The translations under genes were made by a program, and so were the position numbers. The notes under the pieces are model-generated. The model searched no databases and had not been told where the DNA came from. It saw only the letters and a list, made by a program, of their open reading frames with translations. Shown here piece after piece: positions 1,630 to 8,616 of a DNA stretch of 23,213 nt. Location: the IMG/VR virus record IMGVR_UViG_3300005056_000078, positions 1 through 23,213 of that record; one strand, 5' to 3'. Source of the stretch: a virus. Within the stretch, counting starts at the first letter, position 1. Each line of letters begins with the position of its first letter.

Positions 1630-1647
1630 TCATTAAGTTGTAATATA

Positions 1648-1692
1648 AAGAACCTTGACTGTAATAGTTAGGGTTCTTCGTTATTATTATTT
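1648..1692 (+). terminator. intrinsic terminator after the 151-aa gene
   Basis: AAGAACCTTGACT (1648-1660) pairs with AGTTAGGGTTCTT (1666-1678) around the loop GTAAT: thirteen pairs including two G-T wobbles. A T-rich tail (1681-1692) follows. It lies 18 bases after the stop codon and fits a Rho-independent terminator. Confidence 0.85.
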
Positions 1693-1706
1693 AACTGGAG
1701 AAACTT

Positions 1707-5565: not shown

Positions 5566-5569
5566 GCTG

Positions 5570-6107
5570 TTATTGAGTATTGCTAGCCAGCGCAATTAAA
5601 GATTAACTGGTACATGGCGGTGTGATTCCGCGTGGGTGTGACGAAGTAACCTTACAAGCCCTCGTGCTTGAATAATAAAGTCAAATCTCGCTAGTGGGAG
5701 GATAAACTAACTAGCCACCTTTATAAGGGTGGTCTTGAGGCAATGAAGCGAACTGAGGCAATACTTAGTAGGCGCAGGGATAGGCTAGTATGGTAACGTA
5801 CTAGTCGATAGCCTCTAAACAGGCTCGCACTATGTAAGTGGAATAAAACTACGGCATACCCTACCAGAGGTTCATATCGGTTAGAATCCGAGTTGTCGCA
5901 AGCTATTTAGATACCGTGAGTGCATACGATAAAACTGTCGAGGTAGGACATAAAACCTATGGTGAGCCACACTTGAATGGTATGTTATAGTTTATCTACA
6001 TAAGTTCAGAAGAGAAAATGTAGACTCAATAATGAGTATAACAATGTACGCGTATCCTCCCAGCGAATGAGGTGTAGACTGTCCAGCTATGGGAAGGTCT
6101 TTAAAAA
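5570..6107 (+). ncRNA. candidate large structured noncoding RNA 1
   Basis: No plausible gene occurs in about 590 bases, while paired elements are dense. They include CAAGC/GCTTG around 5655-5670; GCTAGT (5690-5695)/ACTAGC (5709-5714); CCACC/GGTGG beside it; CTAGTA (5785-5790)/TACTAG (5799-5804) inside AGGCTA/TAGCCT; CACT/AGTG near 5828; TCGG-TTAGAAT-CCGA near 5877-5891; long-range CCTACC/GGTAGG (about 5860 with 5942); and a three-way junction at 5983-6043. A nine-base direct repeat TGAGGCAAT occurs at 5736 and 5754. Boundaries and strand are inferred: neighbouring genes are all on +. Size fits the ROOL/GOLLD type of phage RNA, but no consensus match was verified. Confidence 0.55.
5983..6043 (+). 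other. three-way helical junction within ncRNA candidate 1
   Basis: Closing helix TGTTATA (5983-5989)/TATAACA (6037-6043), seven perfect pairs. It encloses TCTACAT (5995-6001)/ATGTAGA (6018-6024), seven perfect pairs, and a small stem CTC/GAG (6025-6027/6034-6036) with loop AATAAT. The nesting is consistent and leaves short single-stranded joins, as expected for a folded RNA. Confidence 0.6.
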
Positions 6108-6152
6108 AGTAAATAGCAACTAATTTAACTAACTATTGATTGGAGGTATATC

Positions 6153-7133
6153 ATGCCTAACCAAAACTACGCTGCTGATGGTTCAGTCCTAAGTGGTTCT
6201 GTGTGGGTAAAGCAAGATATACTCTCACTGTTGAAGTTGAATAACTTACCAAAAGGCTTAGTTGGACTTAACACTAAACTAGGTCTAGCAGAGGTCATTC
6301 AAAAGGAAGGCAAGAAAGCAGTATTTATGAAACTCGGAAAGCTACTTAACCAACAAGGTCTGGAAGAGAAGCAAGTAAGAGAGTCTAGCCAGATACTAAC
6401 AGAATTGAAGATACTGCATACACAGGAAGTGTCCTTTGCATATACTGAGGAAGAAATCCTTAGAGTATACCAAGAAGGACCAAGTGCTTGCATGGCTAAT
6501 TGTGAATCAGTTGCACTATATTCCAATGACTATACAGCTGTTGCTTACCTAGAAGTTAAGGGTAAGATACTAGCCAGAACTGTAATATGTAGAGATAAAG
6601 AAATAGGTCTTTCTTATAACTCTTTGTATGGGTTTGGTGAACCACTTGCTAAGATGTTGGAAGAACTAGGTTATACTAGTGGAGACTTAGAGGGTTGCTA
6701 TTTACCACTAAGGCATGACCACCTAGGCAGGATAATGTGTCCTTACATAGATGGTACTAATTATATAACTGTAGAAGGTGATGAAATATCTATTTCTAGC
6801 GATGGTGAATACCAAGCAGATAGTACTGATGGTATCTTAGTGGAGCATACTTGTGATGAATGTCACGAAACGTTACTAAGAGATGAAGTTTATTACTCGG
6901 AGCATAGTGAACAGAACTTATGTGAGGGCTGTCACGAGGTCCATCATGTCTATATAGATGGAGAAAGTTATCACAAAGAAAGTGACTCTGTACAGGAACT
7001 AGAAGATGATAGTTATGTATTATCAGAAGATGCCGAGTACCTAGAGTATAGGAATGAATGGCACTTATTAGAAGATTGTGCATATAACAATTATGATGAA
7101 GTGTACATACTTAAAGAAGATTTAGATTTGTAA
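6153..7133 (+). CDS. probable zinc-binding phage protein (326 aa), between two structured RNA candidates
   Basis: ATG 6153 follows an excellent ribosome binding site (TTGGAGGT). Residues 1-95 are helical. Residues 97-180 contain VYQEGPSACMA and SVALYSNDYTAVAYLEVKGKILAR with LAKMLEELGY, a pattern I associate with uncharacterised phage proteins. Residues 234-260 carry CDEC...CEGC (Cys234, 237, 257, 260), a CxxC-x19-CxxC zinc site. The tail (280-326) is acidic and aromatic, with three short repeats of the type Y/H-x-L-x-E-D (SYVLSED, EWHLLED, VYILKED). Function unknown. Its place alone between two noncoding structured stretches allows a role with those RNAs, but this is inference. Confidence 0.8.
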   Translation: MPNQNYAADGSVLSGSVWVKQDILSLLKLNNLPKGLVGLNTKLGLAEVIQKEGKKAVFMKLGKLLNQQGLEEKQVRESSQILTELKILHTQEVSFAYTEEEILRVYQEGPSACMANCESVALYSNDYTAVAYLEVKGKILARTVICRDKEIGLSYNSLYGFGEPLAKMLEELGYTSGDLEGCYLPLRHDHLGRIMCPYIDGTNYITVEGDEISISSDGEYQADSTDGILVEHTCDECHETLLRDEVYYSEHSEQNLCEGCHEVHHVYIDGESYHKESDSVQELEDDSYVLSEDAEYLEYRNEWHLLEDCAYNNYDEVYILKEDLDL

Positions 7134-7353
7134 AGAATTCCTTTGTTGGATAATCCCGACAGGACGACGTAGGTATGGAGGCGTGGTTAAATAAACTCGA
7201 TGCAAATGGTTGCAGAAACCCACGTAATGGTGAAACACTAGCGCACTACTCAGGAGTCGGTGCATAAACTGACTGCTCTTATAGAACTTCGTGTGTCTAT
7301 GGTTCGCATACCTTAAGTGTCGATTAGTATCCGTAAGATACTACCAATATTAT

Positions 7354-7426
7354 GTTGTGGTAGCTCAGTTTGGCAGAGCAGTGGGGAATATCCCATTGGA
7401 CACTGGTTCGAATCCAGTTCACGACT
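7354..7426 (+). tRNA. tRNA-like element with abnormal anticodon loop (possibly degenerate or non-decoding)
   Basis: All tRNA arms are present. Acceptor GTTGTGG/TCACGAC pairs at 7/7 (two G-T). The D arm is GCTC-AGTTTGGCA-GAGC with the conserved GG. The anticodon stem is GTGGG/CCCAT, the variable loop is TGGAC, and the T arm ACTGG-TTCGAAT-CCAGT is perfect. Total 73 bases, and no CCA is encoded. The anticodon loop, however, has six bases (GAATAT), or eight if the last pair opens, and has no T at position 33. So no normal anticodon can be named. It may be a decayed tRNA or a tRNA mimic that is still processed by RNase P but does not decode. Confidence 0.7.
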
Positions 7427-7507
7427 AACAAAACCGTTGGACAACTTTGAGAAGGAACCAAAGCGGATAATTAGGTTGTAAGCCCTAAGAGAGCTATGTA
7501 TGAAAAG

Positions 7508-7575
7508 CTAACCAAATGAAGGTTAGTAAAGCGTGACACTGACGAGTGTTAGGTAGACGGCTAACATTTGGTTAG
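7508..7575 (+). other. long hairpin within ncRNA candidate 2
   Basis: CTAACCAAATG (7508-7518) and CATTTGGTTAG (7565-7575) pair perfectly over eleven positions. GTTAG (7522-7526) and CTAA (7561-7564) can extend it, and an inner hairpin ACACT-GACG-AGTGT lies at 7536-7549. Confidence 0.65.
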
Positions 7576-7600
7576 TTATATCTACAAATAGCAGCTAACT

Positions 7601-7722
7601 TATATTATCAAGCACACTCACGAGTAAGGTTCAAGTCCTTACCAAGCATACGACCTCTAGTTATGTTTACTCCGTTTCATGAAGCTATTCCTTTATGTAT
7701 GTCGAGTGTGTTTGATAATATA
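7601..7722 (+). other. 19-pair long-range stem closing a multibranch domain with a T-loop hairpin
   Basis: TATATTATCAAGCACACTC (7601-7619) pairs with GAGTGTGTTTGATAATATA (7704-7722): 18 Watson-Crick pairs and one G-T. Inside, GTAAGG-TTCAAGT-CCTTAC (7624-7642) is a perfect six-pair hairpin whose seven-base loop fits the tRNA T-loop consensus TTCRANY. CATAC (7647-7651) can pair with GTATG (7697-7701). Confidence 0.7.
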
Positions 7723-7856
7723 CGCTAGCGTGGTTATCACAGAACCTACATCTAGCAAATGAGTTGCTTAGTCCTAGTTAAAGGACTGTCCCGACGATAA
7801 TAAAAGGATAACAAGTTATGTTAAGGTGAATAGTGACCGTTTAGATTCGATAACAT

Positions 7857-7895
7857 TCCCTGCCCTACAAGGTAGATAATAGCCGCTGGCAGGGA
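7857..7895 (+). other. stem-loop domain within ncRNA candidate 2
   Basis: TCCCTGCC (7857-7864) pairs perfectly with GGCAGGGA (7888-7895). A nested hairpin CTAC-AAG-GTAG sits directly on it (7865-7875), consistent with coaxial stacking. Confidence 0.6.
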
Positions 7896-7905
7896 TAATA
7901 GAGTA

Positions 7906-7977
7906 TACTTGTAGTTAGGCATTAGTCTGGTGAGAACCAGTAATGCAGTGGAGCAAACTAGTGCCGAACTACAAGTA
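7906..7977 (+). other. 3'-terminal domain of ncRNA candidate 2 with GNRA tetraloop
   Basis: TACTTGTAGTT (7906-7916) and AACTACAAGTA (7967-7977) form eleven perfect pairs. GGCA/TGCC (7918-7921/7962-7965) can extend it. Nested inside are GCATT (7919-7923)/AATGC (7942-7946) and CTGGT-GAGA-ACCAG (7927-7940), a five-pair stem with a GNRA-type loop. GGCA and GCATT overlap and are alternatives. Confidence 0.65.
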
Positions 7978-8033
7978 CCCTTTACTTGAAATAGAGCAAC
8001 CTCGCTCACAATCTTTATATAGAGAGATAGAAA

Positions 8034-8378: not shown

Positions 8379-8391
8379 ACCAACCAGTAAT

Positions 8392-8425
8392 TGAATAAAA
8401 CCTAGCTAATGCTAGGTTTTATTCA
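8392..8425 (+). terminator. strong intrinsic terminator after the acidic-tailed gene
   Basis: TGAATAAAACCTAG (8392-8405) and CTAGGTTTTATTCA (8412-8425) form a perfect 14-pair stem around CTAATG. The A-run/T-run within the stem is typical of bidirectional terminators. It starts 13 bases after the stop codon. Confidence 0.9.
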
Positions 8426-8583
8426 GGTGGGTGCGCTCCTGATACGTAAGGCTGTATACCCCCCTACCCAGATATTTGGTGACTAGAGAAAGAATTAATG
8501 AATAATCTCAACGTACTGAAAAGGGTCGCAACCTGCGTTTCTACCTGAATAGAACTTACTAACTGAACTGACATTAACTAATT
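8426..8583 (+). other. short untranslated segment bounded by two terminators; possible small RNA or leader
   Basis: Between the terminators at 8392-8425 and 8584-8616 there is no convincing gene; the only frame with a fair ribosome site would be 16 codons from ATG 8498. GGTGGG (8426-8431) can pair with CCTACC near 8463-8468, enclosing ATAC/GTAT. A small RNA or the leader of the downstream genes is possible. I see no known riboswitch pattern. Confidence 0.3.
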
Positions 8584-8616
8584 GCTCATACCTTCTAGGT
8601 GTGGGCTTCTTTATTT
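8584..8616 (+). terminator. intrinsic terminator upstream of the tail-protein genes
   Basis: GCTCATACCT (8584-8593) pairs with AGGTGTGGGC (8597-8606), ten pairs with two G-T wobbles around a three-base loop, followed by TTCTTTATTT. It separates the short untranslated segment from the genes starting at 8637. Confidence 0.75.

What the first reader, a model, noticed from the sequence alone, without database searches (positions are those of the whole stretch)
5570..6107. Second structured noncoding stretch upstream of the same gene
About 590 bases without a gene contain many perfect short helices and nested long-range pairings (CATACC/GGTATG around CCTACC/GGTAGG). Size is close to that of ROOL RNA. 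With the stretch at 7140-8000 it brackets one gene, so the two may be independent RNAs, two halves of one RNA, or diverged copies; both contain GTGCATA followed by AAACTG in a similar setting.
Basis: partly seen in the sequence, partly recalled or inferred. Interest (0 to 1): 0.75.

Follow-up and report, generated by a model that had tools for sequence, protein, structure and literature searches.

The report
Split large structured RNA in phage
This gene-free stretch is most likely the front part of a large, fast-evolving RNA region of a virus of bacteria that resembles no catalogued RNA family, and in this virus an ordinary protein gene sits in the middle of that region.

Summary
Short helices (29 against 33±6 in shuffles), folding energy (z about -2, like many gene windows) and resemblance to 7134-8033 (41 shared 7-mers against 45±7.5) are at or near chance, and ROOL and GOLLD models do not match. 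What rescues the idea is a relative. IMG/VR contig L097 has the same gene order but, between the same two genes, one uninterrupted 1416-base noncoding stretch and no 326-aa gene. It carries recognisable parts of both window stretches: for 5566-6152 a two-hairpin module (5995-6049) with four double-compensated base pairs, present twice in L097; for 7134-8033 a tRNA-like domain, a 19-bp helix with 14 double compensations, and a ~100-nt motif also found in a gene-free gap of Vibrio phage CHOED. So both stretches belong to one conserved noncoding locus, split here by a protein gene (p326) that also occurs elsewhere in phages. They are not copies of each other. The first ~400 bases show no conservation. 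Transcription, boundaries and function are untested. By kind it resembles the large phage RNAs ROOL, GOLLD and the ICP1 lncRNA, without being a member of ROOL or GOLLD.

The parts
5566..6152 (+). Noncoding stretch IG1, the 5' part of the RNA locus; about the first 400 nt have no detectable homologue
   Evidence: No ORF of 50 aa or more; second longest gap of the window; GC 41.7% against genes 38.7±2.0 and other gaps 34.6%; lies between the same genes as the 1416-nt noncoding stretch of L097
5995..6049 (+). Twin-hairpin module: UCUACAU 5995-6001 / AUGUAGA 6018-6024, then CUCA 6025-6028 / UGAG 6033-6036, then UAUAACAAUGUAC
   Evidence: Homologous to L097 3939-3994, with 4 double-compensated pairs, 1 broken, of 11; a further copy at L097 4074-4107
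5579..6130 (+). Possible closing pairing of the first and last 150 nt of IG1 (for example UUGCUA near 5580 with UAGCAA near 6115)
   Evidence: MFE fold; best 5'/3' duplex -59.6 against -47.8±5.3 in shuffles; not supported by covariation
6153..7133 (+). p326, a 326-aa protein gene inside the locus; absent from L097; homologue downstream of p114 in L003 and in other phages
7134..8033 (+). Noncoding stretch IG2, the 3' part of the RNA locus
   Evidence: Fold z -7.3; many conserved motifs with L097
7354..7426 (+). tRNA-like domain with an irregular anticodon loop (ARAGORN gives no identity; four-base anticodon aata)
   Evidence: Rfam tRNA 47.2 bits, ARAGORN; counterpart at L097 4287-4355 with a degenerate anticodon arm
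7601..7722 (+). Long helix, arms 7601-7619 and 7704-7722
   Evidence: 19 of 19 pairs canonical in window and L097, 14 changed on both sides
7803..7903 (+). ~100-nt motif with GTTTAGATTCGATAACA and CTACAAGG, shared with L097 and Vibrio phage CHOED
8584..8616 (+). Conserved intrinsic terminator that probably ends the transcription unit

Best explanation
5566-6152 is the 5' part of a roughly 1.4-1.5 kb noncoding, structured RNA locus of a phage whose DNA polymerase is closest to those of Pseudomonas phage PA11 and Zobellviridae phage CW02. The locus lies between genes p93 and p114, probably inside one transcription unit that ends at the conserved terminator 8584-8616. In this phage an unrelated gene, p326, sits between the two RNA parts. 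Shown: the gene-free state, the synteny, the uninterrupted state in L097, and conserved compensated helices in both parts. Inferred: that it is transcribed and works as RNA, as one or two structural domains of a primary transcript, in the way large phage RNAs such as ROOL, GOLLD or the ICP1 lncRNA are thought to work. Those are made in quantity during the lytic cycle and (ROOL, GOLLD) fold into large multimeric scaffolds; here a tRNA-like domain is embedded.
For: L097 keeps the gene order Dda helicase, p218, p93, 1416 nt noncoding, p114, lysozyme, without p326. Twin hairpin 5995-6049 against L097: BLAST hits of E 1e-6 and 6e-5 to its two copies, 4 double compensations of 11 pairs, about 1e-4 by random substitution, lost on sliding the register, plus a further L097 copy with another stem. 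IG2: 14 double compensations in a 19-bp helix, motif E 1e-13 between L097 and CHOED, tRNA-like domain in both. No conserved terminator between IG1 and IG2; a conserved one after p114. GC content is above genes and other gaps. No match to PHROGs in any of the six frames.
Against: Only one relative covers IG1, and only about 55 of its 587 nt are demonstrably conserved. Fold energy is unremarkable. The two ends of IG1 may pair with each other, which would suit a separate RNA. No expression data. The CHOED motif sits near the start of its gap, not near the end, so the overall layout is not fixed.
Confidence: 0.62

Rival explanations
1. IG1 and IG2 are two independent phage RNAs that happen to be neighbours; p326 lies between them.
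For: IG1's ends can pair with each other; sequence and fold strength of the two parts differ; in CHOED the IG2 motif occurs without any sign of the IG1 module.
Against: Contiguous and in the same order in L097 with no gene or conserved terminator between them.
Confidence: 0.27
2. IG1 is a leader (attenuator or riboswitch-like) that controls p326.
For: IG1 ends at the ribosome-binding site of p326.
Against: The conserved module exists in L097, which has no p326 there; the L003 p326 homologue lacks such a leader.
Confidence: 0.03
3. IG1 is a decayed or unrecognised protein gene.
For: The longest open stretch, 61 codons, is not unusually short for its composition.
Against: No PHROGs match in six frames with stops masked; substitutions against L097 fall as compensated pairs rather than as codon changes.
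Confidence: 0.03
4. The hairpins act as DNA, for example a replication origin or packaging site.
For: Compensated inverted repeats would also be kept in DNA.
Against: No turn of the GC skew here; a tRNA-like domain lies in the same locus; GC is higher than in flanking spacers.
Confidence: 0.05

Closest known systems
ROOL RNA (RF03087)
   Same: Phage or prophage encoded, about 570-660 nt, large structured noncoding RNA, often near tRNAs (PMC12286853)
   Different: No model match in window, L097 or CHOED even at E 10; here a longer two-part locus with a gene in the middle
GOLLD RNA (RF02032)
   Same: Phage RNA of 800 nt or more with separate 5' and 3' parts and a linker that can contain tRNAs (PMC12286853); here a tRNA-like domain is embedded
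   Different: No model match; motifs and helices differ
ICP1 lncRNA between gp139 and gp140 (PMC7567579)
   Same: Gene-free ~1-kb gap of a lytic phage, ~800-nt transcript, no Rfam family at its gathering score, similarly modest fold z of -2.6
   Different: No significant sequence similarity (best E 0.03); no tRNA in that phage; known to be the most abundant ICP1 transcript, whereas expression is unknown here
Gene-free 1493-nt gap of Vibrio phage CHOED (KJ192399)
   Same: Shares the ~100-nt motif of IG2
   Different: No IG1 module; different order of parts

Membership tests
ROOL (RF03087) | Covariance model match above the gathering score of 99.1 bits | tested here: not met
   No match at E<=10 in window, L097 or CHOED; no true positive was available as a control
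ROOL (RF03087) | Phage or prophage origin, near tRNA genes | tested here: met
   Phage contig; tRNA-like element at 7354-7426
ROOL (RF03087) | Assembly into an RNA-only cage | not testable with these tools
   Needs purified RNA
GOLLD (RF02032) | Covariance model match (gathering score 150 bits) | tested here: not met
   No match at E<=10
GOLLD (RF02032) | Variable 5' part and conserved 3' part, tRNA sometimes in the linker | tested here: inconclusive
   The 3' part is better conserved than the 5' part and contains a tRNA-like domain, but only two full sequences are known
Functional tRNA | Seven-nucleotide anticodon loop and assignable identity | tested here: not met
   ARAGORN gives no identity and a four-base anticodon in the window and finds no tRNA in the L094/L097 contig; the L097 Infernal match has a degenerate anticodon arm

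The most novel reading that the evidence does not exclude
A new family of giant phage RNA of about 1.4 kb with an embedded tRNA-like domain, tolerant enough of insertions that a complete protein gene can sit inside one continuous RNA, in the position where GOLLD and ROOL carry their variable linker.
Probability: 0.25. Interest if true: 0.78.

Novelty: new variant of a known kind. Interest (0 to 1): 0.52.

Why it matters
Large phage RNAs such as ROOL and GOLLD are among the biggest structured RNAs without a known function. A further unclassified locus, with a tRNA-like domain and a natural pair of states (continuous in one phage, split by a gene in another), would show which parts can be separated. 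It would also extend this kind of RNA to phages of another lineage.

Tried and rejected
IG1 against 50,697 phage genomes gave no match. Pattern scans of IMG/VR with the IG1 module and three IG2 motifs found only L094/L097 and CHOED; the other matches, judged by their context, were chance. Scans of 84,980 genomes and the IG2 model in 274 genomes of one class found nothing. A protein search with p114 returned only L097. p114 and p326 against 48 related records found only L003, whose contig ends inside p114, so it cannot tell whether the RNA is there. The idea that IG1 and IG2 are copies of each other was rejected. A relation to the ICP1 RNA was looked for and not found. RF01998 was searched by mistake in place of GOLLD and replaced by RF02032. 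Two attempts to fetch a GOLLD-bearing mycobacteriophage as a positive control failed.

Full report
What was given. The finding describes a gene-free, structured stretch at 5570-6107 that may be a ROOL-like RNA, related in one of three ways to a second stretch at 7140-8000 on the other side of one gene. I call the stretches IG1 (5566-6152) and IG2 (7134-8033) and the gene between them p326.

Setting. The window is a 23,213-base virus record. Its genes include a Dda-like helicase, a primase/helicase, a DNA polymerase, ribonucleotide reductase and a Gp2.5-like protein. The polymerase is closest (about 50% identity) to Pseudomonas phages such as PA11 and, at 48%, to Salinivibrio phage CW02 of the Zobellviridae. 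No close relative of the whole window is in the phage collection.

Checking the observation. IG1 has no ORF of 50 aa or more and is the second longest gap in the window, 587 nt against a median of 107. But perfect stems of 6 bp or more are not more frequent than in shuffled sequence (29 against 33.4±5.8), and only those of 8 bp or more show a slight excess, 5 against 2.0±1.4. The folding z-score is -2.2, or -2.0 on a second run against -1.7 for the opposite strand; 12 of 38 other segments of similar length in the same window do better, and local windows show no excess. This does not speak against an RNA: the known ICP1 transcript scores only -2.6 by the same measure. It means that single-sequence folding cannot decide. 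IG2 in contrast scores -7.3. IG1 and IG2 share no more 7-mers than chance.

A relative decides. Scanning IMG/VR for an IG2 motif brought in a 7474-base contig (L094, the same as L097 in window orientation). It has the same gene order on both sides: homologues of the 151-aa protein, the helicase, p218 and p93, then 1416 nt without a gene, then p114 and lysozyme. p114 is 65% and p93 58% identical. p326 is absent. The 1416 nt contain recognisable parts of IG1 and IG2 in the same order. So the two window stretches correspond to one uninterrupted noncoding locus in a relative.

IG1 evidence. The shared part is a module of two adjacent hairpins followed by UAUAACAAUGUAC (window 5995-6049, L097 3939-3994). 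Of 11 base pairs, 4 are changed on both sides and remain paired and 1 is broken. Random placement of the same 16 substitutions gives at least this in about 1 of 10,000 trials, and sliding the register destroys the signal. A further copy with yet another first stem lies at L097 4074-4107. The rest of IG1, in particular the first 400 nt, has no detectable counterpart. Six-frame translations with stops masked match no PHROGs family.

IG2 evidence. The tRNA-like domain (window 7354-7426, L097 4287-4355) is matched by the Rfam tRNA model in both. The window's anticodon loop is irregular and ARAGORN assigns no identity; in L097 the anticodon arm is degenerate and ARAGORN finds nothing. A 19-bp helix (7601-7619 with 7704-7722) is fully paired in both phages although 14 pairs are changed on both sides. 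A motif of about 100 nt (7803-7903) recurs in L097 and in a 1493-nt gene-free gap of Vibrio phage CHOED, with E 1e-13 between the last two.

The gene in the middle. p326 homologues occur in L003 downstream of p114 and in many Klebsiella and other phages, mostly of about 43 kb. It is therefore a gene that exists independently of the RNA, and L097 shows the locus without it. Whether it was gained here or lost there cannot be told from two phages. The L003 contig ends inside p114, so the RNA could lie just beyond its end.

Transcription. A strong terminator hairpin after p114 (8584-8616) is almost identical in L097. No conserved terminator lies between IG1 and IG2, and promoter-like sites are at chance level. 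Hence a single transcription unit is likely but not shown. The first and last 150 nt of IG1 pair better than shuffles (-59.6 against -47.8±5.3), which would fit a self-contained domain.

Known families. Searches against all of Rfam gave only tRNA in the window and L097 above threshold, and the ROOL and GOLLD models do not match at E 10. A true positive control for these two models was not available. By kind the locus resembles the large phage RNAs: GOLLD, whose linker can contain tRNAs; ROOL, of similar size to IG1 (PMC12286853); and the ~800-nt ICP1 transcript, the most abundant one of that phage (PMC7567579). None has a known function.

Verdict. The stretch most likely belongs to a large noncoding RNA locus that is split by a gene in this phage. 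How it works is inference from the kind of RNA; transcription, ends, number of molecules and function are open.

Noticed in passing
window 8379-8616; L097 5348-5543: Third conserved noncoding element, downstream of p114: flanking arms UAUUCAGGU (8420-8428) and ACCUGAAUA (8543-8551) and a terminator that is nearly identical in L097.
   Followed up: partly
window 7354-7426; L097 4287-4355: tRNA-like domains with an irregular or degenerate anticodon arm inside a long noncoding stretch.
   Followed up: partly
L091 2795-4287 (Vibrio phage CHOED 44219-45711): 1493-nt unannotated gap with no Rfam family above its threshold; contains repeated hairpins such as CCGAGTTTCACATCAATAGTACC (twice) and GGCCTACTGGGTTACCAAAAGGCC (twice), and recurring AAATTA/TAATTT between them.
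   Followed up: no
L135 41362-42452 (Salinivibrio phage CW02): 1.1-kb gene-free gap at the divergent gene junction, fold z -4.1; unexplained.
   Followed up: no
window 1630-1700; L097 about 836-897: Conserved spacer with a hairpin (AAAGAACCTT/AGGGTTCTT) after the 151-aa gene, probably a terminator.
   Followed up: no
L138 98-1108 (Vibrio phage ICP1, complement): The ICP1 lncRNA gap matches no Rfam family at its gathering score; it shares GTTATGTTAAGG.GAA with IG2 (E 0.03), probably chance.
   Followed up: partly
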